A stretch of 64,000 nucleotides of DNA, taken from Muricea muricata (lineage: Eukaryota; Cnidaria; Anthozoa; Malacalcyonacea; Plexauridae). The translations under genes were made by a program, and so were the position numbers. Below are positions 1 through 60,060 of the stretch, piece after piece. Position 1 is the stretch's first letter; the number at the start of each line of letters is the position of its first letter. Location of the stretch: positions 4,821,418 through 4,885,417 of the forward strand of contig OY979725.1 in the NCBI GenBank assembly GCA_963855995.1, read 5' to 3'. The notes under the pieces are model-generated. The model was not told where the DNA came from. It was given only the letters and a program-made list of their open reading frames with translations, and searched no databases.

Positions 1-32
1 TCTCCCCTGTCTTTCTCACTGTATATCGGTAA

Positions 33-389
33 GAAGGTGGCATACTAAACAGACAAACACAACCTGGCTCAAGGGGATCTTCGTCAGGTTTCCACGGGGA
101 TGGGATAATTAGTCTATGTAGTAAAACGTATTATTGTTTTGGGGATGGGAAAGACAAATTTAGTTGCAAAGGGGTTAACAAAAAGAATAATGTTATTAAT
201 AAAGATAAATATTTAGATGTAATTTTAAGTAAACGTAGTGGGTCGGGTGTAAATAGGGGATTCAGAGTTATGAACAATACAATGTGCACATATGTTCAAG
301 TTAAAAACGCTTTTAGTTATTTTTATCCAAAACGTAAAGTTTTGGAAGACGGTGTTGCAACCATTCCATTAGATATATATGATCTGTAA
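33..389 (+). CDS. C-terminal fragment of an unrecognised mobile-element or viral protein, unit 1
   Basis: One frame is open for about 118 codons from the stop at 30-32 to the TAA at 387-389. It has no obvious ATG, so it reads as the last exon or C-terminal end of a longer protein. The C-terminal half is rich in Lys, Asn and Tyr and ends on a short acidic/hydrophobic tail. A GTAAG at 29-33 followed by a TACTAA-like box and CAG at about 88 could be a 60-bp intron. It resembles C-termini of replication proteins of Polinton-like elements. That is an impression from the pattern and from the neighbouring viral genes, not a proven match. The same frame is repeated in unit 2. Confidence 0.4.
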   Translation, partial: EGGILNRQTQPGSRGSSSGFHGDGIISLCSKTYYCFGDGKDKFSCKGVNKKNNVINKDKYLDVILSKRSGSGVNRGFRVMNNTMCTYVQVKNAFSYFYPKRKVLEDGVATIPLDIYDL

Positions 390-600
390 ATAGCTATTTT
401 GTGAATATATCTTTTCAACAACTAACATGTGTGCGTGTTATTACCATCTGTGTCTTATTCACTTTGCCCCAGGCGAATAAAACCTTGACAACACGGGGGA
501 TCATATAACACGATATATGTGATTTTGGACAATAATAGAATCGAGTTCGTGAGCGGGCATTGGTTTGTTTTGCTGAAACGGGACTCGCGGGACTTAATTT

Positions 601-697
601 GTCCCTCCACGGGACTTTGTGTCCCTCCACGGGACTTTTGCAAAACCTAATATCACTTTGCGGGACTTGCGGGACACAATTTGTCCCTCCACGGGAC
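601..697 (+). repeat. Cluster of GTCCC-loop-GGGAC hairpins, repeated in unit 2
   Basis: The 15-mer GTCCCTCCACGGGAC occurs at 601-615, 621-635 and 683-697. Each copy folds into a 5-bp stem with a 5-base loop. Related GGGACTCGCGGGAC and GGGACTTGCGGGAC copies lie between them. The cluster recurs about 900 bp later because of the tandem duplication. Confidence 0.85.
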
Positions 698-932
698 TTT
701 TACAAAAACTATTTTATTTGGTTTTGTGCATGTTTAACAATATTTAGTTATATGTTTAAGTTCATTTAATTATATGTACAGTTACACTTTTGTTATAGTT
801 ATTGGTAGATCTGTAAGTCCTGAATCAGTTCACCGATTTCCTTTTGCCGAAGGAATTCGTCATACGCTTTCTTACGAATCCGTTTCCTTACAAGTAAATG
901 TCTCCTCTGTCTTTCTCACTGTATATCGGTAA

Positions 933-1289
933 GATGGTGACATATTAAACAGACAAACACAACCTGGCTCAAGGGGATCTTCGTCAGGTTTCCACGGGGA
1001 TGGGATAATTAGTCTATGTAGTAAAACGTATTATTGTTTTGGGGATGGGAAAGACAAATTTAGTTGCAAAGGGGTTAACAAAAAGAATAATGTTATTAAT
1101 AAAGATAAATATTTAGATGTAATTTTAAGTAAACGTAGTGGGTCGGGTGTAAATAGGGGATTCAGAGTTATGAACAATACAATGTGCACATATGTTCAAG
1201 TTAAAAACGCTTTTAGTTATTTTTATCCAAAACGTAAAGTTTTGGAAGACGGTGTTGCAACCATTCCATTAGATATATATGATCTGTAA
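933..1289 (+). CDS. C-terminal fragment of an unrecognised mobile-element or viral protein, unit 2
   Basis: This is the second copy of the 118-codon open frame, with the same stop context and almost the same translation. That two tandem copies have both stayed open is expected from their recent duplication and does not by itself show selection. Neither copy has a start codon that would make a stand-alone gene, and no promoter is evident between units. The full protein, if it exists, would need exons to the left of the window. Confidence 0.35.
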   Translation, partial: DGDILNRQTQPGSRGSSSGFHGDGIISLCSKTYYCFGDGKDKFSCKGVNKKNNVINKDKYLDVILSKRSGSGVNRGFRVMNNTMCTYVQVKNAFSYFYPKRKVLEDGVATIPLDIYDL

Positions 1290-1864
1290 ATAGCTATTTT
1301 GTGAATATATCTTTTCAACAACTAACATGTGTGCGTGTTATTACCATCTGTGTCTTATTTACTTTGCCCGAGGCGAATAAAACCTTGACAACACGGGGGA
1401 TCATATAACACGATATATGTGGTTTTGGACAATAATAGAATCGAGTTCGTGAGCGGGCATTGGTTTGTTTTGCTGAAACGGGACTCGCGGGACTTAATTT
1501 GTCCCTCCACGGGACTTTGTGTCCCTCCACGGGACTTTTGCAAAACCTAATATCACTTTGCGGGACTTGCGGGACACAATTTGTCCCTCCACGGGACTTT
1601 TACAAAAACTATTTTATTTGGTTTTGTGTTTAACAATATTTAGTTATATGTTTAAGTTCATTTAATTATATGTACAGTCACACTTTTGTTATAGTTATTA
1701 GTAGATCTGTAAGTCCTGAATCAGTTCACCGATTTCCTTTTGCCGAAGGAATTCGTCATACGCTTTCTTACGAATCCGTTTCCTTACTAGTAAATGTCTC
1801 CCCTATCTTTCTCACTGTATATCGGTAAGATGGTGGCATACTAAGCAGACAAACACAACCTAGC

Positions 1865-1998
1865 TCAAGGGGGGTCTTCGTCAGGTTTCCACTCAAAGAA
1901 GTCACAAGCACTTTCTCTTGGATGAGGACAACAATAGAATAAACGATCCTGATTAGGACCCTCTTTCTTCACTTTCTTGGTGCGACATATCAGATCAT
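1865..1998 (-). CDS. GRF-type zinc-finger exon
   Basis: On the minus strand an open frame ends with a stop at 1865. It encodes a GRF zinc finger: Cys/His residues near the start, then 'KKVKKEGPNQDRLFYCC', a later single Cys and the 'DFFEW' ending. The Val-Lys-x-Gly-Pro-Asn, Phe-Tyr-x-Cys and Phe-Phe-x-Trp positions are the family hallmarks. GRF fingers bind single-stranded DNA in APE2, NEIL3, TOP3A and TTF2 and also occur in element proteins. The frame runs on into the 54-bp repeat array upstream, which is probably not coding. The conserved tail 'KPDEDP' is shared with the start of the 900-bp units. Confidence 0.6.
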
Positions 1999-1999
1999 G

Positions 2000-2410
2000 T
2001 CGGCAAAAGAGCGCGCCTATGGCGTACGTCACGGGGTATACGTACACTGTTTTAACCAACCAGAGCGCGACTATAGCGTACGTCACGGGGTATACGTACG
2101 CTGTTTTAACCAATCAGAGCGCGACTATAGCGTACGTCACGGGGCATACGTACGCTGTTTTAACCAACCAGAGCGCGGCTATAGCATACGTCACGGGGCA
2201 TACGTACGCTGTTTTAACCAATCAGAGCATAGCTATGGCGTACGTCACGGGGTATACGTACGCTGTTTTAACCAATCAGAGCGCGACTATAGCGTACGTC
2301 ACGGGGTATACGTACGCTGTTTAACCAATCAGAGCGTGGCTATAGCGTACGTCACGATGTGTACGTCACGGGGTGTACGTATGCTTTTCGACCAATCATA
2401 ATCTCGCATA
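2000..2410 (+). promoter_or_regulatory. 54-bp tandem array of CRE-like and CCAAT-box sites
   Basis: About seven units with a 54-bp period each contain TACGTCAC (a CRE half or full-site variant), the near-palindrome GTATACGTAC and AACCAATCAGAG, an excellent CCAAT box. The long open frames across it are by-products of the multiple-of-three period. Such an array is typical of a viral or element enhancer/promoter. Its position next to a block of viral-type genes fits that, but activity is inferred. Confidence 0.7.
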
Positions 2411-2989
2411 CTAATTAGTGCGGCGCCCTGCGGTACCCATGGGATTCGGAATACAGCTGAAACCAAATGAAACAAGACATATGAAACATTGTTTCAAAGT
2501 AGTCTCCGTGCATGGCCGATGACTCTGGATACTTCAAAATCTTACATGCTTTAACCATCCCTTGCCACATAACTACATGATGCAATAGTGATAGAGTCTG
2601 TTATGCTGCATATACTAAAATGACGATATAAATCCTTCTTACTCGCAAAATATCACCTGTACTTCTTTCTTTAAATTTTTTACTACAGCACTAAACATAT
2701 TCTGACTAGTATCCGAAGATATCGATATCTTTGCCCGTTTCATAAACAATACTGTGCGACAAAATAACCAAACAAAATACACGGTCATATAACGCGACAC
2801 ATAATAGCTAGACTATATTATACAACACAAACACGACATATAAAATATGAACCCTTTTTATTGTTGAAAGAATGCAGATAATGTAAACAAAGCGTGGCTA
2901 TAGCGTACGTAACACTGTTCGTAGTAAAGCACTGAAATAAAATTACTAAAACAAAATCACTACCACCACAATGTCTCAGACAGTAAAAG
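2411..2989. other. Spacer without a recognised gene
   Basis: The first 40 bases repeat the 'ctcgcatactaattagtgcggcgccct' boundary that also lies at 3870-3900, marking a segmental duplication of array plus boundary. One isolated CRE-like repeat piece sits near 2890-2910. Otherwise nothing coding is visible. Confidence 0.6.
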
Positions 2990-3484
2990 TTATTTATTAC
3001 TTCCTCTCCAATAAGCAAGATATCCTAAAATACAATTCATTTCACGGTCTTCCTTATTGCTGTGCAGTTGCCACAAAGTATACAAAGCGATTTCAGACTC
3101 TCTCTCTAAGTGTCTTAAATGTTCGAGAGCGTCTTTATGACACCTCAGTTTTAATACCCTTGTTGCTTCGGTAAATTCGTCCCAAACCGATCGATTTTCG
3201 TTCAGTAATGCGACAGCCTTTCTGTAATATAATTCCCATTTTTCTTCTTCAGTCAGCATCAGACAGTCATGCTGTATTGGGTGATCAATCTTGCAACCAC
3301 AACAATTCTCTTCACAGAGTCGCTCGATTTCAGTAAAAACAGCGTGCGTATATATCACTTCGATCAGGGAAAACAACTTCTGATATTCAACAGCGGATAT
3401 TTTATCCACATCGTCCTGACAAAATCCACAACCACGAACTCGTCTTCTTCTTGCAGAGCGTCGGTTATTCATTCTTGTCTTCAA
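2990..3484 (-). CDS. Small cysteine-containing protein of the viral/element module, unknown function
   Basis: This is a 164-codon frame. It begins with a very basic stretch (Arg-rich 'RRSARRRRVRGCGFCQDD', residues 7-24), then a helical region, then a central 'CCGCKIDHPIQHDC' motif at about residues 60-73, and ends in amphipathic helical sequence. The Cys-x-Gly-Cys...His...His-x-Cys spacing could bind a metal. I recognise this motif as recurring in small uncharacterised proteins beside Polinton-like elements in cnidarian genomes, but no function is known to me. It lies between two CRE/CCAAT arrays, the likely divergent control regions. The frame is unbroken. Confidence 0.65.
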   Translation of the reverse strand: MKTRMNNRRSARRRRVRGCGFCQDDVDKISAVEYQKLFSLIEVIYTHAVFTEIERLCEENCCGCKIDHPIQHDCLMLTEEEKWELYYRKAVALLNENRSVWDEFTEATRVLKLRCHKDALEHLRHLERESEIALYTLWQLHSNKEDREMNCILGYLAYWRGSNK

Positions 3485-3589
3485 GTTTCTATTAAACAGC
3501 TTAGTGATCGTAGTGAGTACAACGCGACGGTAAACTTATATAGTACAAACGCATCGGTGAATTTATATAGTTTTATGCCACCACCCATT

Positions 3590-3890
3590 AACCAACCAGA
3601 GTGCGGCTATAGCGTACGCCACGGGGCATACGTACGCTGTTTTAACCAATCAGCGCGCGGCTATGGCGTACGTCACGGTGGGGTGTACGTCACGGTGTGT
3701 ACGTCACGGTGTGTACGTACGCTTTTCGACCAATCAGCGCGCGACTATAGCATACGCCACGGGGCATACGTACGCTGTTTTAACCAATCAGAGCATAGCT
3801 ATGGCGTACGTCACGGGGTGTACGCCACGGGGTATACGTACGCTGTTTTAACCAACCAGCGCGCGACATTCTCGCATACTAATTAGTGCG
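3590..3890 (+). promoter_or_regulatory. Second CRE/CCAAT array
   Basis: Four to five units have the same core as the 2000-2410 array (TACGTCAC, GTACGCTG, AACCAATCAG). They are partly rearranged, with extra GTGTACGTCACGG insertions near 3680-3715. The array lies directly upstream of the 164-residue minus-strand gene and points the other way towards the membrane-protein genes. Confidence 0.7.
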
Positions 3891-4084
3891 GCGCCCTATG
3901 GAGGCTTGCGGCGCCCTGCGGTACCCTTGCGGCGCCCTGCGGTACCCTTGCGGCGCCCTATGGAGGCTTGCGGCGCCCTGCGGTACCCTTGCGGCGCCCT
4001 ATGGAGGCTTGCGGCGCCCTGCGGTACCCTTGCGGCGCCCTATGGAGGCTTGCGGCGCCCTGCGGTACCCTTGCGGCGCCCTAA
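3889..4084 (+). repeat. GC-rich 20/21-bp minisatellite
   Basis: Alternating units 'cttgcggcgccctatggagg' and a 21-bp partner ending in 'gcggtacc' form a tandem array in otherwise AT-rich DNA. A single unit is also at 2420-2440. Frames through it are low-complexity and not coding. Confidence 0.95.
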
Positions 4085-4140
4085 AAAAAAGGGTTGATCG
4101 GCCTTTATAATACTACTAACGATTGGCGTGGGACAAGAAA

Positions 4141-4341
4141 ATGGATAGGCTGCGGAACGAATTATCAGAAGCACAACGCGAAAAAAACGAAGCACAACAA
4201 AGCGAAATGCAGGCACGAATTAGGCTTGCACAAAAACTCACATTAACCTATCAACTGAGTAAATCGTTTAACGATCTACGGTCTGCTGTTATGGTTGCAA
4301 TAGGTGTTGGTGGAGCATTACTTTTAAAAAAGATTTCCTAA
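4141..4341 (+). CDS. Small coiled-coil plus membrane-anchor protein of viral module
   Basis: The first ATG is at 4141 and gives 66 residues; an in-frame TTG upstream is less likely. Residues 1-45 are a charged Glu/Gln/Lys/Arg helix with heptad character. A single hydrophobic segment near the C-terminus ('AVMVAIGVGGALLL') is followed by two lysines. It converges on the next gene with an 11-bp gap. Small tail-anchored proteins in a cluster beside a capsid gene resemble the minor membrane proteins of PRD1-like viruses. The individual role is unknown. Confidence 0.5.
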   Translation: MDRLRNELSEAQREKNEAQQSEMQARIRLAQKLTLTYQLSKSFNDLRSAVMVAIGVGGALLLKKIS

Positions 4342-4352
4342 TTTAAAATGAA

Positions 4353-4616
4353 TTAGGAAAATTTATAGGCTGCATATCCTATATCTGCAACAATACCGAT
4401 CGTATATAAATTTTCCAATAAGAAATTCGATGTTTTAAGACCGGTTGTAAGAAGAGAACCCGTTTCTTTTACAATATTGGTAACTCCTGCAACGGACTCT
4501 GGGACGGCTTCGAGCACGTCTTGACCGCCTGTTAACACCATAGTACCGGCTACTGCACCAGCTGTTAGAACAGGTGGTGCTACTTTCCCGGTACGTTTAC
4601 GCCATTTCTTTTTCAT
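4353..4616 (-). CDS. Small hydrophobic protein of viral module
   Basis: Eighty-seven residues begin with a basic head ('KKKWRKRTGK'), then a Gly/Ala/Thr-rich hydrophobic stretch (residues 14-30) and a second weakly hydrophobic C-terminal region. Its start overlaps the end of the next upstream gene by about 20 bp, the packing expected of virus genes. Probably a membrane or inner-capsid protein; no homolog is recognised. Confidence 0.5.
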   Translation of the reverse strand: MKKKWRKRTGKVAPPVLTAGAVAGTMVLTGGQDVLEAVPESVAGVTNIVKETGSLLTTGLKTSNFLLENLYTIGIVADIGYAAYKFS

Positions 4617-4983
4617 CTTTATCTTCGGTCAAATAATCGTAAGCTAGAAGCCCCGTACATCCTAAAATGATCACTGTTAATATTGTTCGTTTTGAAAGGT
4701 CAACTGTTGTGGCTACGTCGTTACTGTTTGCTGTAATCCTTATTAAAGTTGGAGGGTTATTTGAAATATCCATTGCTAATTGTGCAGATCCGCGCACACC
4801 AAACGTTTCGGTTACCGTTCCTACTGTTGTTAAAATAGCCGCAGTTTGTTCGTTATGTTTTACCTGTTTTCCGTATTCCTTTAATGATTTTTCGACAGCT
4901 TCGTTTAAAAGACTGTCGACCAATTCGGGGTCAATATCAATGAGCCCTTCTTTTGATAATTTCTTTAAATCCTGTCGTTTCAC
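4597..4983 (-). CDS. Tail-anchored protein of viral module, 128 residues
   Basis: The N-terminal 60 residues are charged and helical. A middle soluble part follows, then one transmembrane segment ('ILTVIILGCTGLLAYDYL', about residues 100-117) and a short acidic/basic tail. It overlaps the start of the 87-residue gene, so the two were probably expressed together. Function unknown; a minor virion membrane protein is the best guess from context. Confidence 0.5.
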   Translation of the reverse strand: MKRQDLKKLSKEGLIDIDPELVDSLLNEAVEKSLKEYGKQVKHNEQTAAILTTVGTVTETFGVRGSAQLAMDISNNPPTLIRITANSNDVATTVDLSKRTILTVIILGCTGLLAYDYLTEDKDEKEMA

Positions 4984-5035
4984 TTCTATCGTTTATTTTA
5001 AATTTTTTCTAAACGGGATAATATTTTTGGCCTAT

Positions 5036-5260
5036 TCAACCTAGGTTGTTGTTTTTTGAAGTATATAAAAAGCCGCCAACACCCACTGCCGTTATTGCAA
5101 GCACGGCAGGTAAAATCATTTTTGATCGGTCTTCTTCTTGTACCTTGTTTTGTTCATCTTGCCGTAATCGTTTAAATTCTTCGCGTTTCTGCTTGTTATA
5201 CTCGGCTAATCGTTTTCCTTGTTCGACGCATTTGGGATCCTTTAAAGTAATCGTTTCCAT
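5036..5260 (-). CDS. Coiled-coil tail-anchored small protein of viral module
   Basis: Seventy-four residues. Residues 10-48 are strongly charged (Lys/Arg/Glu/Gln) and predicted coiled coil. Residues 50-66 are one membrane span ('ILPAVLAITAVGVGGFLY') followed by a short polar end. The layout matches the 4141 protein, which suggests a small family of membrane-tethered helices in this module. Confidence 0.5.
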   Translation of the reverse strand: METITLKDPKCVEQGKRLAEYNKQKREEFKRLRQDEQNKVQEEDRSKMILPAVLAITAVGVGGFLYTSKNNNLG

Positions 5261-5676
5261 AATTTATATTACAGCAGTGCTACAACAGTGCTGTAACACT
5301 GCTGCAACTACCTTGCAAACAAATACGCAGCAAAATACAACCAGCTATACAACAACCTTAAAATTACTTGCATTTTACTTAAAAGTTGTTTAAAGTTACC
5401 TTCTAAGCAATTTTAAAACAAAACTAAGCAAGTACACAGCAAAATACAGTTAGCTATACAGCTACTTTAAAATTACTTACATTTTTGCTTGTTACCTTAA
5501 AGTTACCTTACTACAACCTGCATAAAAAATGTTATAACCAAGAACAGGTTATAACATTACTCTTCTTTTTGGTACAATAATATATCTTCGTCACTGTCGG
5601 ATAATAGCGAATATGTTTTTTTCTGTTTTTTGTTGAACCGTTTAAAAATTTTTTAAAAGGAAAACACATTTTTTAT
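5261..5676. other. Non-coding gap with a hairpin and a direct repeat
   Basis: CAGCAGTG and CACTGCTG near 5273-5305 can form an imperfect hairpin with inner repeats of the same motif. Two related blocks of about 58 bp at roughly 5321-5378 and 5427-5485 share 'agcaaaatac' and 'aaaattactt', 106 bp apart. No frame looks real. It could be a control region or origin-like spacer of the element. Confidence 0.5.
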
Positions 5677-5946
5677 TTAAACCTCCAAAACGTTACCGCT
5701 GTTAACCGATCTTTCTTTAGCATGTAAGTTAACATTTACAAAACTGTCTTTGATCGTTTTTTCTGTAATCTCTTTAACTTCTTGTTTAAACTTATCGTCT
5801 TTTCGTTTTTGGCGGCGACGTGTCATTAAACATTCTAACAGCATTGATCCCACAGTGCTCATGACAAAGGCACCAACACCTGCAACAGCGTAGAAAACAG
5901 ATTCTTCATGTAGTTTTATGAAATCAGGTATAGGTGTGGTAATCAT
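5677..5946 (-). CDS. Single-span membrane protein of viral module, 89 residues
   Basis: A short N-terminus, a long hydrophobic span at residues 16-40 ('FYAVAGVGAFVMSTVGSMLL'), an immediate basic stop-transfer ('RRRQKRK') and a helical charged C-terminus. It sits 37 bp from the next gene in the same direction. It has no recognised family. Confidence 0.5.
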   Translation of the reverse strand: MITTPIPDFIKLHEESVFYAVAGVGAFVMSTVGSMLLECLMTRRRQKRKDDKFKQEVKEITEKTIKDSFVNVNLHAKERSVNSGNVLEV

Positions 5947-5983
5947 TTATTCAGATGATTTTTTGGACCGGTTTAAGTTAATA

Positions 5984-6169
5984 TCACCTATAACAGGCAT
6001 CTTTTTTGGGACCGTTGTTTCTACGTAAATATTCGACGGCAACAGCAGACCCAAAAACAGTTGTTAAAGAATTCACCATTTTGTTCTTGTTATATTTGGA
6101 CAGCACTTTTTCGACTCCCATAGATAATGCTGCAACTAAAGCAGCAGACACATATTTGTTAGACTTCAT
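5984..6169 (-). CDS. Small membrane protein just downstream of capsid gene
   Basis: Sixty-one residues: basic start, Ala/Val-rich hydrophobic segment (residues 7-18), then a second mildly hydrophobic segment around residues 35-47. It follows the capsid remnant in the same direction within about 10 bp of the apparent capsid C-terminal frame. Likely part of the same transcription unit. Confidence 0.45.
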   Translation of the reverse strand: MKSNKYVSAALVAALSMGVEKVLSKYNKNKMVNSLTTVFGSAVAVEYLRRNNGPKKDACYR

Positions 6170-6171
6170 CT

Positions 6172-6913
6172 CTTTTATTTTATAATACCTTCGAGATTAG
6201 CACCTTCGAATTGTGCAAAACCGTCCGATACAAGGTAAACGTAACACGTTACGTCGTTTGTTGTAGCCTTCTTTTTTATTTCGTATTTCGTATTCTAACC
6301 GTAAGTTTGTAAGTTCATACGACCCCACAACACCTTTCTCACCGCGTGGAACAAAAATATTTTCGTTTGACGCCAACCGCATTTCAAATTCAAATTCCTC
6401 GCGAAGAGCGCACGGTGCAAACAACCCGCAGTTATCTAATATCTGTCCCAATTGGATTCGAATCGTACTACAAAAAATTTTATACAACCCTTCCACTGCA
6501 GCATTATTGACGTACGTATTATCCTCACTAAATTTTTTCCGTATTAACTCGGTCATAATACCGCTCGACCGTTTACGTTGTCGCTCCTCGTTCGTCTGCC
6601 ACAAATCACGGAACAACGAGTACGTGTTTTCGTTTGTGTTTTCGTAAATTTCTTTGTTACCGTATTTTACAGAAAATTTCTTAACTAATGCTTTGGAAAG
6701 ATTATTTACACATGTTGCTTTTGTACCATCTACTTTAAAGTTAAAAGCAACGTTTACGCTGCTTGGAACTGCGCAAAAATCGTTCCGAAGATGTGGGAGT
6801 CGGACTGTTAATAGTTCACCTGCTTTTACGGTCGAGGGATATAATGTTATTTCATAGTTTTTTCGTTCGCCGGTGATTTCTGCTTCAGTATACGTTTGTT
6901 TACAACAAGTCAT
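6172..6913 (-). pseudogene. Double-jelly-roll major capsid protein, internally deleted
   Basis: The ATG at 6911-6913 opens 238 codons. The N-terminal jelly-roll pattern typical of Polinton, adintovirus and Polinton-like-virus capsids is clear: a polar start, 'RLPHLRNDF', 'ALVKKFSVKYGNKEIYE', 'LDNCGLFAPCAL' and 'YELTNLRLEYE' at about residues 205-215. After that the frame runs into unrelated residues and stops at 6197. The last roughly 30 codons in a second frame, down to about 6172, look like a capsid C-terminal strand, so the second jelly roll seems to have been deleted. Full family members are about 450-600 residues, so this copy is about half length. It is divergent from the ATPase with 14 bp between starts. 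Confidence 0.75.
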
Positions 6914-6927
6914 TTATTATATAAACT
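6914..6927. promoter_or_regulatory. 14-bp divergent intergenic between capsid and ATPase
   Basis: Only 'atttattatataaact' and its neighbours separate the two ATGs. It is very AT-rich with a TATATAA core that could act in both directions. Promoter function is inferred from position alone. Confidence 0.35.
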
Positions 6928-7503
6928 ATGTCGCACACGCTAATTGTTGGCCGATCTGGCTATGGAAAAACACATTATCTTTTAAACTATTTAAAGGAAA
7001 ACTGTGGACAGAAATATAATGTGATATACTGTATATTATTTGTCCAACGTATAGTATTAATTCTATGTGGCAGACCTGGTCGTGTAAAAACGATTCTGGC
7101 GTAAAAGCGTTTAAAACGAATGTGAACCGTGCTATTAAAAATATTTTATTATCACACCCGCAAGGAAAAAAAGGACTTGTTATTTTAGACGATATTGCGT
7201 TTACGAAAGACGTTAAAAAACAGTCGAGCGAACTTGTTAACGTCGGTTTTCTGGTCGTCGCCGTGGAATCGATACGATCGTTCTTACACAACAACTCACG
7301 AGTATTGCAAAAGCGTACCGTGAAAATATAACGTTTTTAGTCTCGTTTTATATGCCTGGAAAACGAGACATGAAGGTTATTGTAGACGACTTTTTAGATT
7401 CTGAAGTCAACGTAAAAGAGATTAGTAAACAATTACGGAAAACACCTTATGCACAGCTTGAAATCTCTTTACAAAGCCCATACGGACATCAAATAAAATG
7501 TTA
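6928..7503 (+). pseudogene. A32/FtsK-HerA-type DNA-packaging ATPase, frameshifted
   Basis: The first frame starts MSHTLIV and has the P-loop 'GRSGYGKTH' at residues 8-16, then is lost by about 7060. A second frame (about 7065-7260) carries the Walker B strand 'GLVILDD' and the following helix. A third frame (about 7258-7503) carries the 'TQQLTS' sensor region and the conserved C-terminal end. Together these are the order and spacing of viral genome-packaging ATPases, in three frames, so the copy is inactive. Its stop overlaps the ATG of the next gene by 6 bp (ATGTTAA). It pairs functionally with the capsid remnant. Confidence 0.8.
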
Positions 7504-8463
7504 ACTCCAAGACGGTATACTGCAATTCGTGGCCAAAAAAATAACCCAAAAGAACCAAAATATTACCCGCGGTACATGGGTGATATTGAACAGTTTAAAG
7601 TATACTTGAATTCCCACGACTACTTTACTGTGAAATTCCCAAAACTCGTCCGATACCGGTGGAGTACAACGGTGGATAAAACGAATAATGATGGGATTGT
7701 AGACGATCCTACGTTTGAACATTCTATCATGTTCCAAACAATGGCAGCTACGTGGGTCGCTACATGGGAATGTGTAATTTCCCAAGAAGATATGCTGAAA
7801 CCTGGTATTATTGGATCTTTATATAGATTTCATGTATATTTCACGGTCCAACGTATTTTACGATCCCGTGGTAGATTATCTTTTTACGCAAAAGACGTTT
7901 CGGTCGTAAACAGCGTCTGGAGATATTTACCTACAAAATACGAATTATGCGACTATAGAAAAGGCCGTGTGTGTAAACTGATTGAAATTTCCGACATGGA
8001 TTACCTACATATGGTGGCACCAAAAACGGAAGGTCTTACAAGGCTAGGTACACAATTATTTCAACAAGCGGTTTTAACGTTCGTATATGCAATATTAGCA
8101 GCACAGGCTATAAACCCTGGAAAAAATATTGTCGGTACAAACGGTATCGCCTTAATCTTGCAAAAGTTCTTTGTAGACAAAGTAGAGGATCGTATAAAAG
8201 CCGATAATGGAGTTGATAATATACTAGACTTGAATAACCGGACGATTGTCCATAACACAGCAAGTGGGACAATTACATTGCATAAAGATATTACACCCGT
8301 CCCGTCAAATCTAAAAATTAACCCTATAAAACCTAAAAACCCATTACCCGAACAGCGGAAAAAAGAAGAAGAAGTTGTTGTTATTAAATCTTTAAAAAGT
8401 TCTATTCCAATCGTTATAGGTGTGGGACTAGGAACCTTAATTTTAACTAAAATATTTTTATAA
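7498..8463 (+). CDS. 321-residue tail-anchored protein of viral module, unknown function
   Basis: This intact frame starts inside the ATPase stop region. Residues 1-220 are a mixed soluble domain with many aromatic and basic residues ('RFHVYFTVQRILRSRGR'). It then has a proline/lysine-rich linker (about 270-295), and the last 20 residues are hydrophobic ('SIPIVIGVGLGTLILTKIFL'). The position next to the ATPase would suit a minor capsid, vertex or membrane-associated virion protein. I do not recognise the family. It is the longest unbroken viral-type gene here. Confidence 0.6.
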   Translation: MLTPRRYTAIRGQKNNPKEPKYYPRYMGDIEQFKVYLNSHDYFTVKFPKLVRYRWSTTVDKTNNDGIVDDPTFEHSIMFQTMAATWVATWECVISQEDMLKPGIIGSLYRFHVYFTVQRILRSRGRLSFYAKDVSVVNSVWRYLPTKYELCDYRKGRVCKLIEISDMDYLHMVAPKTEGLTRLGTQLFQQAVLTFVYAILAAQAINPGKNIVGTNGIALILQKFFVDKVEDRIKADNGVDNILDLNNRTIVHNTASGTITLHKDITPVPSNLKINPIKPKNPLPEQRKKEEEVVVIKSLKSSIPIVIGVGLGTLILTKIFL

Positions 8464-8494
8464 TTTTTTGTAGTCTTTAAAATTACAAAAAAAT

Positions 8495-8858
8495 TTAACC
8501 GTGTGTTATCCATGAATTCCCACAGTTCGTGCACGTTGCAAATACGGTCGCGCCTTCGTCACCTCCCCTCGTTTGCCGCGAGTCGGAAACGATTTTATTA
8601 GATTTACATTTTTTACATTGCAGTACAGAATCTTCGACGGTTTCTTCGACGTCGATGGCATTCGTTTGCTTTTTTTTGAAGTTCAATACTACAGATCCGT
8701 TTTTTCACATCCATCGTTTTATTTATCAATGTATTTTTTAGGGTTATGATTGTGACTCTGTGGTCCTTTTTGTAATGGTGGTAGTCCGTGATTAATTCGA
8801 CACTGTTTTGCGTTAGGAATATCGATTGGACAGCTTTATAAAATAGGTTTTGTTCCAA
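8495..8858 (-). pseudogene. TFIIS-type zinc-ribbon transcription factor, frameshifted
   Basis: The C-terminal frame (8495-8686) encodes a TFIIS zinc ribbon: 'CKKCKSNKI', then the catalytic-loop pattern 'RQTRGGDEGATVF' with the Asp-Glu pair, then 'CTNCGNSW'. The N-terminal part is in a different frame (start at 8858), and the two meet at an A6 run near 8705, so one base has probably been gained or lost. TFIIS-like factors rescue stalled RNA polymerase and are carried by several large DNA viruses. Finding one beside a capsid and ATPase argues for a virus with some control of transcription. The C-terminal frame alone lacks an ATG. Confidence 0.7.
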
Positions 8859-9031
8859 GATATTGATTCATTTTTACTATTCCTAAAATCACTTTTTTAA
8901 TTTCTTGATTTTTTAAAAGATTTTTACCTTTTGAAAAAATGTTTAGATAACAAATTTTCCTATTTTTCAATTAAAATATGGCTTACTATAGTCACGCCCA
9001 GAGATACTACACCCAACACAAGTATACCCAT
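8859..9031. other. AT-rich spacer between TFIIS-like and SSB-like genes
   Basis: Runs of A and T dominate, including 'attttttaaaagatttttacc'. A possible minus-strand frame tail from 9239 ends here at 8967. It has several Cys residues but no recognisable fold. Confidence 0.4.
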
Positions 9032-9583
9032 TCATCCCACAAAAATCACTAGCACAATTATCTGAATCGTTGTCAGCCGGCTGCCTTGTAATATTACCAC
9101 CCCAAGACAAGTCACCAGTCGGACGTGCTCGCGGACGTGTTCCTTGACGAGCGCTTCGTATAATTTTAATTGGAGACTCGCCTGGTCGCCGTTCAACAAA
9201 ATTCCGCTGATTTCCAAAACGCCTTTGACGTCGCAACACCTATCATCGTATTTGGAAGCGTCCACTTCGTTGGCACCCTCGTACAATTTGGTAGTTGCTT
9301 TAAATTTCGGATATATCGTGTTGTCTTTGTAAAATACCCTTTTCGTTAACGGTTTGCCCAAATGAGCTTCGCATTGGCCGATAATGTTTTGGAGACTTGC
9401 CGTTGTCGCGTCGTCTAATTTCAAAGACATCGACGTCGTCTTAAATCTCTTGTCTTTTTTTACGCCAAACGAAAAACATTTGTCAGTTTTCACGAATACT
9501 TGTTTACCCTCGTCCGTCTTGATAGGAATCATTTTCATTCCGCCGACGTTCAATGATTTAACAGCTTCGAATTTAAGAGACAT
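9032..9583 (-). CDS. Candidate single-stranded-DNA-binding protein of viral module
   Basis: The first good ATG is at 9583 (MSLKFEAV). The order of short motifs, 'GGMKMIPIK', 'VKTDKCFSFGVKKDKRF', 'SMSLKLDD', an internal aromatic 'RVFYKDNTIYPKFK' and 'DVKGVLEISGI', resembles ssDNA-binding proteins of large eukaryotic DNA viruses. This is recognised by pattern, without alignment. After about residue 155 the frame becomes hydrophobic and unlike the rest. An overlapping frame (9239-8967) may carry the true tail, so a 3' frameshift is possible. A role in coating replicating DNA is inferred. Confidence 0.45.
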   Translation of the reverse strand: MSLKFEAVKSLNVGGMKMIPIKTDEGKQVFVKTDKCFSFGVKKDKRFKTTSMSLKLDDATTASLQNIIGQCEAHLGKPLTKRVFYKDNTIYPKFKATTKLYEGANEVDASKYDDRCCDVKGVLEISGILLNGDQASLQLKLYEALVKEHVREHVRLVTCLGVVILQGSRLTTIQIIVLVIFVG

Positions 9584-9640
9584 TATTGTTTTATTACCCA
9601 CCTAAATTTTACTTTTTTAATTTCTCGATTTTTTGCCGGG

Positions 9641-9979
9641 CTACCAATCTTCCAGAAGCGGTTCTGGACCGGATTCTGACATATCTTCGGAGACAACTTT
9701 TTCGGGATACAACCCGGGAATCATTTTAAAATGTTTTTCCACACCAGCAAGGATAGAATAGATGCTACCCGATTCTGCGGAAAAATTCATTTCCAAATGC
9801 ACAGGATCGCAGGAGGGATCCTCGAGCGCGGGCATCGTTATTTTTATACACACGATTTTACCAAGTTGATAGTCCGACACGCATTTGAAATCTTCCATCA
9901 TCACAGAAATTCCGTGGTGCTTCACCGAATACAAGCCAAAATACATGTCCGAATATAACAGTTCAACAATTAAAACCAT
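9641..9979 (-). CDS. 112-residue acidic protein at the edge of viral module, unknown
   Basis: The chosen start is the ATG at 9977-9979, because upstream codons of the longer frame fall in the repeated CCATCTTG sequence. The protein alternates beta-type hydrophobic strands ('MVLIVELLYSDMYFGLY', 'GKIVCIKITMP') with acidic loops and ends in a Glu/Asp/Pro-rich tail. No family is recognised. The unbroken frame, orientation and spacing (57 bp from the SSB-like start) fit a member of the viral gene set. Confidence 0.5.
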   Translation of the reverse strand: MVLIVELLYSDMYFGLYSVKHHGISVMMEDFKCVSDYQLGKIVCIKITMPALEDPSCDPVHLEMNFSAESGSIYSILAGVEKHFKMIPGLYPEKVVSEDMSESGPEPLLEDW

Positions 9980-18045: not shown

Positions 18046-21000
18046 CAAGCAAGTCTGGTGAACAAAAACCCTCTTTATCCAGGATCTAGTGTTACTACAG
18101 CCCAATGTCTTCTTCTCGTCATGGCTTATGTAATCCGACATCATCTTACACATGAGGCACTTCAGGATCTGTTGGTTCTCTTAAATGTCCTGCTACCAGA
18201 TTCAATACCAGCTACAAAGTATAAATTTTTCAAAGCATTTGACTGTGGTTTATTCCAGGTATAATTATATTCTTGTGTAATTTTATGGTACTGTAACAAT
18301 AAAATCTATGCCCTAAATCTGTACTTGTTGATCATTTGAACAACTTATAATTTTCCACTGATTACCAAATATATAGTATGCAGGTATATATTGATATAAT
18401 CTTCTATTGATTGCAAATAATGCTCATAAACAAAGAGTAAAATATGCTCATTGCTTTCACATTTTGTAATCCAAACTAATGAAACTCTAAAATGTTCAAT
18501 GTAATAATAAATGTTGCAGCTATCCTAACTTTAATATACAATTACATGTTATTTCAATGAGCACAATTTTTACTTCCTTACCGTAACTACCACAATAGAA
18601 ATAATCATTTGTGTACTGTGTAAAATCTATATATACCAATTATTATTATTATTATTAGTCTTTATTCTATATATAAAATCTCTGAACTACACGAAGTTTC
18701 ATAAATACGTAATCAATCTTCATAAATGTACTAATCAAATTTCTTTTTATTTTTCAGATTCACTTCTATTGCCCATCTTGTTTCTTTTATCTTGGAGAAA
18801 GCAGGGTGGACAGAAATTGTGAATCTTGTGATGAAAAATTTAATGTTGACAAGTCTACAAAGGATGGCAACTATTTCCTATATCTTCCTATGAAACATCA
18901 AATTAAGGATTTACTTGGTCAGGACAAATTAAAGCAATATTTAATAGACCGTGCTATTGCTACTAATCAAACTACCGGCGTCATTTCCGACATAACGTCT
19001 GCAGACCTGTACAATGATTTAGTGGAGAACCATAATTTTTCTGGTAATGATTTGTCCTTAACCTGGAACACAGATGGTATTCCGGTGTTTGAATCATCCA
19101 ATTATTCAATTTGGCCTGTACAAAGTGCGATAAACGAATTGCCCCCTCATCTACGAGAGAAACATATCCTTCTCCATGGACTTTGGTTTGGGACAGAAAA
19201 GCCAGCCATGAACACATTTCTGACGCCATTCATTGAAGAATGTAAACTACTTGAGACGGATGGTCTTGCGTTTGAGGGAAATGAAAAGCCAGTAAAAGTA
19301 TATGTTCATGTTCTGAGCGCCGATTCACCTGCAAGAGCCATTGTAAAAAACTGCAAACAGTATAACGGTAAACATGGATGTGACTGGTGCGAATTTGCTG
19401 GTGAAACCATTGACAATGGTGGGCCTCCAACCAGATATTATCCATACAGAGACGCTCCGAAGATGCGGACAGCTGAAAAACAAGTGGAGTATGGTCTTAA
19501 AGCAATCCAAAACGGCGAAGATGTTAAGGGAGTAAAAGGACCGTCCGTAGTTGGAATTCTTCCCTCTTTCGACCAAGTGAGAGGTAAGATCTTAAGCACG
19601 TTTACATGATTTGTCGGGGACGATTCTAACTTCTTGGTATCAAGCAATTGAATATGTTCGTATCAAATAATTATCTATTTCAAATTTTCGCATAAACTAA
19701 TTAGGCATGAATGAGAGCTCTCACTTTTATACAATAGTTATCGTCCGTCCTCAAAAAATCTCTACATTGTTGTTGCAAAAGGGCGACGGTGACGTCTAAA
19801 CTTTCATGGGATTATATATATATATATATATATAATTTACTGCATACATTTCAGGGGTTGCTGTTGACTTCATGCATTGTGTTTGTTTGGGTGTGACCCG
19901 TCAATTTGTTAGCATGTGGATGGACAGTCGGCAGCATGAAAAAAGTTTCTACATTGGCAGAAGTGAAAACGAGATTAATGCTCGTCTGCATTCCATTGAA
20001 GTTCCTGGGGAAATCAGCCGTGCACCAAGGTCTATTGGTGATCGCAATCACTGGAAAGCATCCGAATGGAGAGCCTTCATTTTTTATAGCCTGGTCAATC
20101 TCCGTGGCATCCTCCCTTCAACACACCTGAAGCATTTCTTCCTATTTGTGTATGGGGTGTACACTCTCCTAGGCGATTCCATCGCGCAAGATTCGATCGA
20201 TTCCGCTGAAGCCTGCTTAACGAAATTTGTTATTGAAGTCGAGGAACTGTATGGCTTAAAGTGTTGTACATTCAACGTCCATCAGCTGATCCATCTTGCT
20301 CAATCAGTTCGTGATTGTGGTCCTCTTTGGTCTTCTGCAGCGTTCATGTTTGAATCTAACAACCACACCTTGCAGAAGATGTTTCACGGGACACAACACA
20401 TTCCAAAACAGATCGTGGAGACATACGTAATCACCAAAAGCATGCATGCACTTGCTAAACAATGCATTAACGAAGAAAGTTGCCCTGCTGTTCACCATTT
20501 GTTGAGGTTAAGAAATGTTAAATCTTTTGACAGTGATGTGTTCCTTTCAGAAGACGTTCGTGGGATTGGCAAAGAAACAGCCATCCAGCTTACTCCATCA
20601 CAAGTCCTTGCTGTGCAAGATTTAATTGGAGTGGAAGTGAAAAAGCGTCATGGTGTGATGTACTCCAGGTTTGTTGCGCATAAGAAGATGTACTCAAGTA
20701 TAGAGTATGTTCGAGCAAAGAAACATGTGAATAGAAACATAACATTCGAACATGTCCAGTATATGTACGGTGTTATCTCAGGACTTCTAGCAATTAAACC
20801 GGAATGTTTATGCTCTATAGAAGAGCTTCAATACTGTGAGTGTAGCAGTTTTAATGTTGTATTAGTTCGGCCAATGATGGCGCGTGGTAGACCACTTTAC
20901 AGAGACCGTGACTTTAATCTTGAGAGCTTCTTCCTAGCGGAGGTAGAGCATCTTGCCAAGCAAATAGCAATTTATCCCGCTCAAATTAAAAAGAAATGTA

Positions 21001-21065
21001 TTGTGCTGAAGTTGGAAGGGAAAGAATACTTCTGTCCACTTCCTTATAACATAAACGACAATTAA
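18046..21065 (+). CDS. EnSpm/CACTA-family transposase, three exons visible
   Basis: Exons 18,046-18,258, 18,758-19,583 and 19,855-21,065 have polypyrimidine-AG acceptors and GTATAA/GTAAGA donors and join in phase to give about 750 residues without a stop. Exon 2 starts with a Cys-x2-Cys...Cys-x2-Cys zinc element ('CPSC', 'CESC') and then 'WNTDGIPVFESSNYSIWP', typical of the Transposase_21-like family. 'VLSADSPAR' and 'DFMHCVCLGVTR' supply the likely catalytic aspartates, and 'SSAAFMFESNNHTLQ' the glutamate. The first exon is missing or unrecognised. With terminal arrays on both sides the element could be autonomous. Confidence 0.8.
19815..19836 (+). repeat. Short TA repeat in transposase intron
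   Basis: About eleven TA units in the 271-bp intron between exons 2 and 3. Confidence 0.9.
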
Positions 21066-51150: not shown

Positions 51151-51425
51151 ACAAATGATATTAACTTCCCAGTAACACTTCTTTCAACAGGCCCATTTAC
51201 ACGACATGAATTTTCGGCACGGGTTGCTAAAATTTGGGCCCGAGAGCCAATTTTTCCGGCCCGTTAATTTCTGTTTGCACGACAGTTATTGCGTTTCGAC
51301 CTCCGTGCCATAAGATTAAGGTGGGCACTTCTAACTATTTTATGGCACTGTAGGGTTCGCAGTAGAGGTGCCAGCGGTCTACCGTATATTAATTTCTTTT
51401 TCGCGTTTTTGCGCGAAATTTAAAT

Positions 51426-52682
51426 ATGGCGGACAGCAACAATAGCTCAAAGCTCCTAAAGCAAATTATTGTTAGGTGGTATATTCAGAAAAGTAAAAGT
51501 TTAAAGAAAAATATTTCATCAGTAAGTCGTAAGACTACTGTTAAATTGCCAGACTGGATTAGAAAAAGGCGCAGAATAGCTTTTATTGAAGCTGTTCTGG
51601 CGACTTTGTGTCGCCCACGAAATCGGCTGCTATGGAGCCATCCGAGATCGTTCGTATGGATAGAAATGGTCGAACAAACGTACGATGATAACTTATGGTA
51701 CGCCAATTTTAGAGTGAGCAAAAATACGTTTGAATATCTCCTACATATGGTACAAAATGATATTCATCGTTCTGACACAACTATGCGCTCAGCAGTTCCA
51801 CCGAAACGACGCTTGGCGCTTACCTTGTATTTCTTGGCCTCTACTGCGGAGTATAGAACAATCGGTAACCTTTTTGGTGTATCCGCATCATTTGTCTGCC
51901 TATGTGTAAGAGTCGTGTGTCGTGCTATTATCAAACGACTGGCTAAATTTATCGAATTTCCAAAAGGAAACCAACTGCAAGAAGTGATCGAGGGCTACGA
52001 GAAAACATGGGGTTTCCCAATGTGTGCAGGAGCTATTGATGGGACACACATCCCAATCCTTGCGCCGTCGGAAAGTCATGCAGAATATGTTAATCGAAAA
52101 GGTTATCAAAGCATCCAAATGCAGGCTGTCGTCGATTGCAATTACCTGTACAGAGACGTCGTGATTGGATGGCCAGGAAGTGTTCACGATGCCCGCGTTT
52201 TTTCCAATTCTGCAATTTTCAAGAAAGGAAATGATGGAAAACTTTTTCCAATCGAGCTAGCAAAGGAGATAAATGGCGAGGAAATCCCGCCATTTATTGT
52301 AGCAGATCCTGCCTATCCTCTCCTGCCATGGGTCCTGAAAGGCTATCCTAACGACAAGAATGCACTTAGGCGTGAACGAATATTTAACTATCGCCTGGGT
52401 CGTGCCAGGGTGACAGTAGAAAATACTTTTGGGAGGTGGAAAGGAAGATTTATTCGATTTTCCAAGAGAGTTGACATGGAGGTGTCAAGTTTGGTGAATG
52501 TCACATATGCATCTTGTATTTTGCACAACGTATGCGAGCTTCAGAAGAATGAGTACTTACCATTTTGGAATAAAAATGAAGTCGTTCCAGAGGTTGTCGC
52601 GGATGAAATCGATGAAGACAACAACCTACCGCATGACGCCAGTGATATTCGTGAAACATTAGCAAACTACTTCACAGCATAA
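51426..52682 (+). CDS. PIF/Harbinger transposase (HARBI1-like), intact
   Basis: An unbroken 418-codon frame starts at ATGGCGGAC. It has an N-terminal basic helical region, a helix-turn-helix ('TAEYRTIGNLFGVSASFVC'), then the DDE_4 core: 'GAIDGTHIPILAP' (first Asp), 'DVVIGWPGSVHDARVF' (the second-motif DAR), 'ADPAYPLLPW' and 'RARVTVENTFGRWKGRF' (final Glu). Length and order match HARBI1-type proteins. In the superfamily it acts with a Myb-like partner that brings it to the nucleus and the TIRs; that partner is the convergent gene at 53,250-55,241. All catalytic residues look present, so the element may have been active recently. Confidence 0.92.
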   Translation: MADSNNSSKLLKQIIVRWYIQKSKSLKKNISSVSRKTTVKLPDWIRKRRRIAFIEAVLATLCRPRNRLLWSHPRSFVWIEMVEQTYDDNLWYANFRVSKNTFEYLLHMVQNDIHRSDTTMRSAVPPKRRLALTLYFLASTAEYRTIGNLFGVSASFVCLCVRVVCRAIIKRLAKFIEFPKGNQLQEVIEGYEKTWGFPMCAGAIDGTHIPILAPSESHAEYVNRKGYQSIQMQAVVDCNYLYRDVVIGWPGSVHDARVFSNSAIFKKGNDGKLFPIELAKEINGEEIPPFIVADPAYPLLPWVLKGYPNDKNALRRERIFNYRLGRARVTVENTFGRWKGRFIRFSKRVDMEVSSLVNVTYASCILHNVCELQKNEYLPFWNKNEVVPEVVADEIDEDNNLPHDASDIRETLANYFTA

Positions 52683-58608: not shown

Positions 58609-58855
58609 TAGTGCATAGCTGCAGGCATTCTTTGGGCCCATTGCCGTTCAATGTATCTGTAAATAGTGTTCATTTGCAAAAACCGAATTATTATGCTCTA
58701 GGCCCGTACCATAAAAAAATCCATCAACAGAATGTATTGTCGAGGCAGTGAAGATATGCCTAGAGCATAATAATTCGGTTTTTGCAAATGAACACTATTT
58801 ACAGATACATGGAACGGCAATGGGCCCAAAGAATGCCTGCAGCTATGCTGATTTA
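58609..58855. repeat. Inverted duplication at 5' edge of Penelope copy
   Basis: 'gcctagagcataataattcg' through 'atgcctgcagctatgc' (58,757-58,850) is present inverted at 58,615-58,705, with about 50 bp of spacer. The RT frame continues only from the right arm. Confidence 0.9.
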
Positions 58856-60060
58856 GCAATGGGTATCATTGATGAGCAAGTTAAAACAGGTGAAATCAAA
58901 CCCAATTTGTGGTGGCGATATCGAGATGATATTTTTGATTTATGGACGTTGGGAATGGATAAGTTAGTGGAATTCACAGAATTCATCAATTCTTTACACT
59001 CCACGATAAAATTTACGCTGGTTTTTTCGGAAGCATCGTTAAACATGCTGGATCTCACTCTCAACTTGGTGGACGGATTTATCCAAGCAGACGTGTATTC
59101 GAAGCCTACCGACAATCACCTCTATTTACAGAGAGATAGTGCACATCGACAACACTGTATTAAGGCTATCCCATTTGGGATAGCTACCCGTTTGAGAAGA
59201 TATTGCTCCACTGATGAATACTTTATGAAACGTAGTGAAGAATATCAAAAATATCTGACAAGCAGAGGTTATAAATCGACCAACGTAAAGCGTCAGTTTG
59301 ATAAAGTTATGTCCGTCCCTAGAGAAGATCTTCTTTCAGCCAAAACCAAGGAGAAGAAAACAGTTTTCCATTTGGTCGTTGACTTCAACCCACGCCATCC
59401 GGATATCGGAAAAATAATTAAAAAACACCTCCATCTGCTTCAGGAATCTCCAGAGTTGTTGGCATTATTCCCACCCGGTGCAATTATACCATCATTCAGA
59501 AGACCCAAATCCATTAAAGACTTGTTATCGTCAAAACGTCATCGTGTCTCCAAATCTGGTCAAGGACAAAGCCCTGGTGGCTGCTTCAAGTGCGTAAGAA
59601 AGTGTGACCTATGTAATAATTATTTAAAAGAAACGAACAATTTTGAAAGCTGTCAAACTGGAAAAAGATATTCAATCAAACAGAATATTAAATGTACATC
59701 TCACAATGTCATTTACTTGATCACTTGCAATAAATGTTCAGTGCAATACATCGGTTCCACAAGCACTGAACTTAAGGTTCGTTTCCAAAATCATAAATCA
59801 GCTATGCTCACCAACAAGAAGACGTGTGAAGTCGCTGTCCATTATAACAGCATGGAGCATTGTCTTTCAGACTTTAGCTTTATAGGTATAGAACAAATAA
59901 ATTAAAACAATGTAGTTAATACCACAGACAAACGCTTGCTTACGAAAGAAGCATATTGGAGTGCACAATTGTGCACGTTGAAACCGTATGGACTCAATAA
60001 GAGGTGCGAATTTAGATCTAAAAACAGAATAAATTATTCTTAATTCGTTTTTAATATTCT
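58748..60060 (+). CDS. Penelope-like element RT with GIY-YIG domain, 5'-truncated
   Basis: Three hundred and eighty-five codons to a TAA at 59,903; the same frame then continues for about 45 more codons ('EAYWSAQLCTLKPYGLN') to the real end, so a single stop splits the C-terminus. Motifs: 'GTAMGPKNACSYADLAMG', the catalytic 'WWRYRDDIFDLW', 'LNMLDLTLNLVDG', a Cys-rich linker ('CFKCVRKCDLCNNY') and the GIY-YIG nuclease ('NVIYLITCNKCSVQYIGSTS', 'VRFQNHKSAM'). RT fingers are missing at the 5' inverted duplication. Penelope RTs prime from DNA ends, and the nuclease is unique to this class among animal retroelements. Confidence 0.88.

What the first reader, a model, noticed from the sequence alone, without database searches (positions are those of the whole stretch)
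2990..9979. Endogenous dsDNA virus (Polinton-like or adintovirus-like) with its own TFIIS and SSB-like genes
A capsid remnant, an A32-type ATPase, a zinc-ribbon transcription factor, a candidate ssDNA-binding protein and six or more tiny membrane proteins lie in one 7-kb block. The capsid/ATPase pair is standard for Polinton-like elements. TFIIS plus SSB plus a dense set of tail-anchored micro-proteins is not standard for Polintons and looks like a step towards larger viruses or PRD1-like internal-membrane virions. It could be an undescribed animal virus lineage.
Basis: partly seen in the sequence, partly recalled or inferred. Interest (0 to 1): 0.9.

Follow-up and report, generated by a model that had tools for sequence, protein, structure and literature searches.

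The report
Decayed Polinton-like provirus with TFIIS
This is a broken copy of a virus-like DNA element living in an animal genome; better-preserved relatives in the same genome carry a large RNA polymerase subunit, a gene usually found in much larger viruses, which bears on how giant viruses arose.

Summary
The core observation holds. Window ~4,141-9,958 carries a capsid gene of probable double-jelly-roll fold (internal deletion), an A32-type packaging ATPase (broken into three frames), a TFIIS zinc ribbon (PF01096, E=6e-15), a DUF2738 protein, an intact 321-aa protein with a C-terminal hydrophobic stretch, and six small genes. It belongs to an amplified family: 150 capsid matches in the host genome, five of them close. 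Two close relatives are bounded by 747/771-bp terminal inverted repeats (16.1 and 14.9 kb); one shows a 6-bp target duplication. All four close relatives share the cassette and add a DNA_pol_B_2 polymerase and an RNA polymerase largest subunit (RPB1). A further locus has RPB1, TFIIS, polymerase and a DUF2738-like gene. dN/dS is 0.03-0.23 in 37 comparisons. No integrase was found in these copies, and no RPB2. Every RPB1 copy examined is interrupted. Corrections: 2,990-3,472 belongs to an adjacent palindrome; ssDNA binding is unsupported so far; only some small proteins are clearly hydrophobic. Reading: a Polinton-like provirus lineage with NCLDV-style transcription genes. Searches made here found no published Polinton with RPB1; the origin of RPB1 is unresolved.

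The parts
4141..4341 (+). p66, relative of p97 of other copies
   Evidence: 62% id, 1.8e-20 to C1:40.8M p97
4353..4616 (-). p87 small gene
   Evidence: 75% id to C1:40.8M copy
4597..4992 (-). p131 small gene with C-terminal hydrophobic stretch
   Evidence: 70% id; dN/dS 0.14-0.18
5036..5260 (-). p74 small gene with hydrophobic stretch
   Evidence: two HSPs, 69% and 56% id; hydropathy 2.02
5677..5946 (-). p89 small gene
   Evidence: 84% id, found in C1:49.99M copy only; dN/dS 0.11
5984..6169 (-). p61 small gene next to capsid
   Evidence: 73-77% id in three copies
6178..6282 (-). C-terminal remnant of the capsid gene, other frame
   Evidence: 74% id to residues 359-393 of C1:40.8M capsid
6197..6913 (-). 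major capsid protein frame (first ~216 residues match the family; middle deleted)
6928..7501 (+). A32-type packaging ATPase, in three frames
7498..8463 (+). p321, intact, C-terminal hydrophobic stretch
   Evidence: 25 relatives; dN/dS of window pairs 0.07-0.23
8495..8704 (-). TFIIS C-terminal zinc ribbon; the upstream part seen in intact relatives (127-130 aa) was not identified here
   Evidence: PF01096 6e-15; relatives
9032..9583 (-). DUF2738 protein; C-terminus diverges from relatives (presumed frameshift)
   Evidence: PF10927; 139 relatives; alignment
9644..9958 (-). further open frame at the element edge, unidentified; membership inferred from position
   Evidence: no Pfam hit passing its cut-off for the frame containing it; not found in other fetched copies

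Best explanation
The block is a decayed, end-truncated copy of a family of Polinton-like proviruses. Two relatives in the same genome are 15-16 kb units bounded by ~0.75-kb terminal inverted repeats. Shown: the four close relatives carry a DNA_pol_B_2 polymerase, the capsid protein, an A32 ATPase, p321, small proteins, a DUF2738-like ORF (inside the inverted repeats where these were mapped) and RPB1; one further RPB1 locus also has TFIIS. Inferred: the polymerase copies linear DNA from protein-primed ends; A32 packs it into jelly-roll capsids; hydrophobic proteins act in a membrane step of assembly or entry; DUF2738 coats single-stranded DNA; insertion uses a Polinton-type integrase supplied in trans by rve-bearing relatives in the same genome (6-bp target duplication at one copy, no own integrase found). 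For transcription my first choice (about 0.35) is that viral RPB1 replaces host RPB1 in an otherwise host-derived polymerase, with viral TFIIS as its cleavage factor. An RPB2 encoded elsewhere is the main alternative.
For: Same gene order in four other copies. TIR alignments of 747 bp (97.2%) and 771 bp (97.5%); AGTAG ends and ATCTTA on both flanks at C1:40.8M. Pfam above cut-off at C1:40.8M: RPB1 domains 1-5 (e.g. 4.1e-34, 5.3e-27, 4.7e-30), Pox_A32 4.3e-13, DNA_pol_B_2 1.1e-17. RPB1 has NADFDGDEMN and aligns with Pol II and archaeal chains over two blocks. TFIIS beside RPB1, polymerase, zf230 and SSB161 at C1:4.457-4.468M. DUF2738 profile scores the TIR-borne ORF 27.2 bits, best of 2000 shuffles 9.9. 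dN/dS 0.031-0.231 in 37 of 37 comparisons. Jelly-roll capsid matches.
Against: The window copy has no RPB1, polymerase or TIR match (a 20-base TIR match is chance-level). TFIIS is absent from all four capsid-bearing RPB1 copies and the close form of DUF2738 too. RPB1 is interrupted in each of the five copies examined. No RPB2 motif in fetched loci. The C13 copy shows no matching target duplication. Capsid and p321 models are poor. 18 of 37 dS values exceed 1, and TFIIS, DUF2738 and some small genes were not tested.
Confidence: 0.84

Rival explanations
1. Ordinary Polintons that recently captured host RPB1 and TFIIS; the genes are passengers.
For: RPB1 is most like Pol II and archaeal chains in the PDB; TFIIS is a common cellular domain.
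Against: RPB1 is only 40-47% identical to Pol II, archaeal and IMG/VR viral sequences alike over the compared domain and sits on a long branch; it is syntenic in four capsid-bearing copies with dN/dS 0.12 and 0.16 in the two segment comparisons made.
Confidence: 0.09
2. Fragments of an endogenized giant virus (NCLDV) rather than small elements.
For: NCLDV capsid proteins rank first in the PDB comparison; A32, RPB1 and TFIIS are NCLDV genes (recalled); Hydra vulgaris is listed with NCLDV core homologs (PMC5294986, passages).
Against: Two copies are 15-16 kb units closed by inverted repeats with a DNA_pol_B_2 polymerase; many separate copies exist.
Confidence: 0.04
3. The window's TFIIS and DUF2738 came by recombination from another element group rather than from the RPB1 group.
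For: 5 of 9 other TFIIS places lie within 6 kb of a capsid match at 27-31% identity; the two such loci examined carry rve, collagen-like and penton-like genes. The four capsid-bearing RPB1 copies lack TFIIS and close DUF2738.
Against: One RPB1 locus has TFIIS between RPB1 and the zf230/SSB161 side, on the side where the window has it. No DUF2738 match was found in the two examined rve-type TFIIS loci either.
Confidence: 0.35

Closest known systems
Polintons/Mavericks
   Same: TIRs, 6-bp TSD at one copy, DNA_pol_B_2 polymerase, probable jelly-roll capsid, A32-type ATPase, 15-16 kb (size and hallmarks of Polintons recalled)
   Different: No rve found in the RPB1 copies; RPB1, TFIIS and DUF2738 genes; capsid not recognised by Pfam. 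Bellas 2023 (PMC10120064, one passage read) notes that cnidarian MCPs fall outside the main Maverick-Polinton cluster.
Meldviruses, e.g. Meld23486 (Buck 2024 preprint, PMC11071296; parts 1-2 of the text, sections 16 and 25, and passages read; supplements not seen)
   Same: Polinton-type replication genes with capsid genes resembling those of poxviruses or megaviruses; the rve-bearing relatives here look alike
   Different: 'TFIIS' occurs 0 times in the text; no RPB1 in the parts read, though RNA polymerase was not searched for there
Yeast cytoplasmic linear plasmids/VLEs (PMC6211774, part of abstract and passages)
   Same: Virus-like elements with their own RNA polymerase genes (protein-primed PolB recalled)
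   Different: No capsid gene (recalled); non-canonical two-subunit polymerase whose model lacks the TFIIS-binding rim helices
Mriyaviruses (PMC11253617, start of abstract and passages)
   Same: Small DNA viruses with NCLDV-type MCP and ATPase; gamadviruses have a T7-SSB-like protein
   Different: Have VLTF2/VLTF3 and HUH endonuclease; 35-45 kb; 'TFIIS' 0 times in the text
NCLDVs (Nucleocytoviricota)
   Same: A32, DJR capsid, RPB1, TFIIS (recalled as NCLDV genes)
   Different: Much smaller; different polymerase family (recalled); RPB2 motif, D5 and VLTF3 not found in what was scanned

Membership tests
Polinton/Maverick | Terminal inverted repeats | tested here: met
   747 bp and 771 bp in two relatives; absent from the window copy
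Polinton/Maverick | 6-bp target site duplication | tested here: inconclusive
   ATCTTA at C1:40.8M, none seen at C13; two copies examined
Polinton/Maverick | Protein-primed-type PolB | tested here: met
   PF03175 1.1e-17, similar frames in three more copies; protein priming itself not tested
Polinton/Maverick | rve integrase | tested here: not met
   tblastn with the rve frame of L020 (PF00665 4.1e-8) finds none in the 12 loci covering the four RPB1 copies, nor in L055-L056 or the window. One rve query only; a distant integrase could be missed
Polinton/Maverick | Double-jelly-roll capsid and A32-type ATPase | tested here: met
   the capsid fold rests on a weak model
Polinton/Maverick | Penton (minor capsid) and adenain-like protease | tested here: inconclusive
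   The penton-like frame of L020 finds no match in the RPB1 copies; p321 is unidentified; the protease was not tested
Adintovirus (definition in PMC11071296) | Hexon recognisable by BLASTp; integrase with chromodomain | tested here: not met
   No integrase in the RPB1 copies; capsid matched an adintovirus protein at fold level only, not compared by BLASTp with a reference hexon
Nucleocytoviricota | RPB1 and TFIIS | tested here: met
   together at one locus
Nucleocytoviricota | RPB2, D5 primase-helicase, VLTF3 | tested here: inconclusive
   RPB2 motif absent in fetched loci; the genome-wide RPB2 search did not complete; D5 and VLTF3 only through Pfam scans of chosen frames

The most novel reading that the evidence does not exclude
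These proviruses are a living intermediate between Polintons and nucleocytoplasmic large DNA viruses: capsid-encoding, TIR-bounded 15-16 kb elements that have kept an ancient virus-own transcription module (RPB1, TFIIS) and descend from, or are sister to, the stock from which giant viruses acquired their RNA polymerase.
Probability: 0.17. Interest if true: 0.96.

Novelty: new variant of a known kind. Interest (0 to 1): 0.86.

Why it matters
Whether giant viruses arose from Maverick-like elements is disputed: the 'nuclear-escape' hypothesis against alternatives (PMC10328495, abstract and passages). No row listed by my searches describes a small Polinton-type element with an RNA polymerase subunit. 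Multi-copy elements that pair Polinton-type replication with RPB1, and at one locus TFIIS, give sequences on which that dispute can be tested. They also raise a mechanistic question: how an RPB1 without a visible RPB2 would work, perhaps as a virus-specific version of host RNA polymerase II.

Tried and rejected
Close relatives in IMG/VR: none for the capsid, p321, DUF2738 (46) or the 160-aa frame. The four hits to an ATPase piece (71) were set aside: in the two loci checked, L001 and L004, no ORF of 80 aa or more lies over the match; L002 and L003 were not checked. Prokaryote genome contigs: no capsid relative. Phage records: none for p321 or a DUF2738 protein.

T7 gp2.5-type SSB as relative of DUF2738: hhalign probability 0.2, unsupported (85). 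PDB profile searches gave nothing for the capsid, one hit at E=0.35 for p321 (33) and best E=0.016 to an unrelated-looking Dot/Icm substrate for DUF2738 (64). The p321 model failed (pLDDT 32). In PHROGs one ATPase piece gave a terminase family at 0.003 (8); not pursued.

RPB1 origin: a 13-sequence tree of one domain did not resolve (122); no host RPB1, Pol I or Pol III sequence was in it.

The 160-aa Cys/His frame at 2990-3472 was dropped from the element: window 1-4061 is an inverted copy (99.6% over 4067 bp) of C10:4812801-4816867 (113).

It showed that TFIIS and close DUF2738 are absent from the four capsid-bearing RPB1 copies, so I lowered the main confidence from 0.85 to 0.84 and the bold reading from 0.18 to 0.17, and raised the recombination rival from 0.30 to 0.35 and the host-capture rival from 0.08 to 0.09.
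Full report
1. Observation. The capsid frame (6197-6913, minus) belongs to a family of about 400 aa: 45 proteins at E<=1e-3 of 209 candidates, the window's own included. The 321-aa frame has 25 relatives of 1062 candidates. By identical length of the longest contig, 12 contigs appear to hold both families (44 and 25 distinct lengths compared), so the pair seems to travel together; only 4 lengths are shared between the capsid and DUF2738 lists (110 distinct lengths). The DUF2738 protein has 139 relatives of 244 candidates, 120 listed. Pfam gives the TFIIS zinc ribbon at 6e-15 for window:8495-8704 and DUF2738 at 2.2e-6. The Walker-A piece of the ATPase has Pox_A32 on top (1.9e-4, 21.5 bits, below the cut-off of 22.8); intact relatives in L019 and L021 pass it (4.3e-13, 2.6e-13).

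2. Decay. The capsid gene has lost its middle and its end lies in another frame; the ATPase runs through three frames; of TFIIS only the zinc ribbon is recognisable; the DUF2738 tail diverges from its relatives. Proteins from a contig of 660,018 bases elsewhere are 98-99% identical and share the DUF2738 tail, but that capsid is full-length (P0002, P0071), as expected for another haplotype or individual. Full-length relatives therefore exist.

4. The host genome. The window lies in a 453-Mb assembly, C10:4821418-4885417. The capsid frame has 150 matches (150 scored of 217 candidates): five at 68% identity or more, counting the window, and the rest at 27-36%, many with open frames above 400 aa.

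5. Close relatives. One search gives the gene order. At C1:40.83M, C13:6.08M, C1:20.61M and C1:49.99M it is: DUF2738-like ORF (SSB161), zf230 (seen at C1:40.83M and C1:20.61M), RPB1 (only the middle piece at C1:49.99M), TM133 (not detected at C1:49.99M), p321, ATPase, capsid, small genes, polymerase. The window keeps p66 to p321 of this order. Terminal inverted repeats bound the C1 copy (40,825,536-40,841,632; 747 bp, 97.2%) and the C13 copy (6,071,469-6,086,326; 771 bp, 97.5%). The C1 copy begins AGTAG and is flanked by ATCTTA on both sides; the C13 copy shows no such duplication. Polinton ends and 6-bp duplications as hallmarks are recalled. No rve, penton-like or collagen-like match was found in the 12 loci covering these four copies, using the L020 frames as queries.

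6. Gene identities. Pfam on C1:40.8M frames: RPB1 domains 1-5 above cut-off, DNA_pol_B_2 1.1e-17, an endonuclease VII domain in the frame upstream of the polymerase, NUMOD1 just below cut-off, Pox_A32. The RPB1 frame is open from L023:9078 to L019:1465 when each piece is checked, then breaks before its last third. In the other four RPB1 copies it is interrupted too. PDB comparison of the middle piece: Pol II 185 bits, archaeal 184, Pol III 173, Pol I 133; for the last piece ASFV and vaccinia score 36 and 33 against 118-120 for Pol II and archaea. IMG/VR: 13 loci, 11 with long matches at 27-34% identity and 2 short ones. The tree of one domain is unresolved.

7. TFIIS. Ten places in the genome (15 of 15 candidates scored). 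5 of the 9 others lie 3.8-5.8 kb from a capsid match (distances). At C3:20.3M and C1:2.97M the TFIIS frame is open (130 and 127 aa; PF01096 5.2e-14 and 5.9e-14), in loci with rve, collagen-like, penton-like, A32 and capsid genes, some interrupted. At C1:4.457-4.468M it sits between RPB1 and zf230/SSB161; no capsid match was found in the 20 kb fetched there. TFIIS is not in the four capsid-bearing RPB1 copies. So TFIIS is seen with RPB1 at 1 of 5 RPB1 loci.

8. DUF2738 and SSB. The TIR-borne 161-aa ORF is no Pfam hit but scores 27.2 bits with the DUF2738 profile (best of 2000 shuffles 9.9). The close form of DUF2738 was not found in the fetched RPB1 or rve-type loci. The Hydra viridissima genome paper lists DUF2738 among enriched domains (21 and 12 copies in two Hydra species; PMC7642931, passages) without a viral explanation in the passages seen. 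ssDNA binding is an inference; profile comparison with T7 gp2.5 gave nothing.

9. Selection. In 37 pairwise comparisons over ten segments of nine genes (capsid, ATPase, p321, RPB1, p128, p91, p89, polymerase, SSB161) dN/dS was 0.031-0.231. 18 of 37 dS values exceed 1, so ratios are rough. Three small genes were tested; p61, p66/97, p74/94, TM133, zf230, TFIIS and DUF2738 were not. No tested gene looks neutral, which indicates that copies descend from replicating, functional elements and decayed after insertion.

10. Mechanism. Shown: gene content, repeats, constraint. Inferred: protein-primed replication, A32-driven packaging, integration in trans, membrane role of small proteins, and use of RPB1/TFIIS in transcription. 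With no RPB2 visible, a hybrid with host subunits is my first choice at about 0.35.

11. Against known kinds. The rve-bearing relatives (L020: rve 4.1e-8, collagen 2.2e-24, A32 5.6e-12) resemble the meldvirus idea of Buck 2024. The RPB1 group departs from Polintons by the lack of a detected rve and by RPB1. Searches listed no paper that I recognised as describing RPB1 in a Polinton-like element; these were listings of 1 to 30 rows, open-licence papers only. Bellas 2023 has no 'RNA polymerase' in its text; in Krupovic 2024 the phrase occurs once, in a reference.

12. Limits. The window copy alone lacks RPB1 and polymerase; the case for them rests on relatives. Host species is unknown; a cnidarian is a guess. 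RPB1 and RPB2 counts genome-wide could not be obtained (genome search busy).

Noticed in passing
window 1-4061 and G000:C10:4812801-4821400 (L033): Large near-perfect palindrome (arms several kb, about 99% identical) with distant PolB-like pieces near its centre and a 160-aa Cys/His frame in each arm; it abuts the capsid element.
   Followed up: partly
G000, e.g. L020, L022 (C1:116.4M, C1:78.1M): Highly amplified group(s) (145 capsid matches at 27-36% identity); the two examined have an rve-chromodomain integrase, collagen-like gene, penton-like gene and a 361-aa relative of p321.
   Followed up: partly
L024:1520-3751 (-): Frame upstream of the polymerase carries an endonuclease VII domain (PF02945, 5e-6).
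   Followed up: no
window 18713-21065: Transposase_21 (tnp2) match above cut-off and a weak DUF4218 match: transposon remnants.
   Followed up: no
window 51393-52679: Open 429-aa frame that looks like a Harbinger-type transposase (by eye).
   Followed up: no
window 58715-59902 and 60895-61908: Reverse-transcriptase plus GIY-YIG-like frames resembling Penelope elements (by eye).
   Followed up: no
Hydra viridissima genome paper PMC7642931 (passages): DUF2738 listed among domains enriched in Hydra; this finding suggests a proviral origin.
   Followed up: partly
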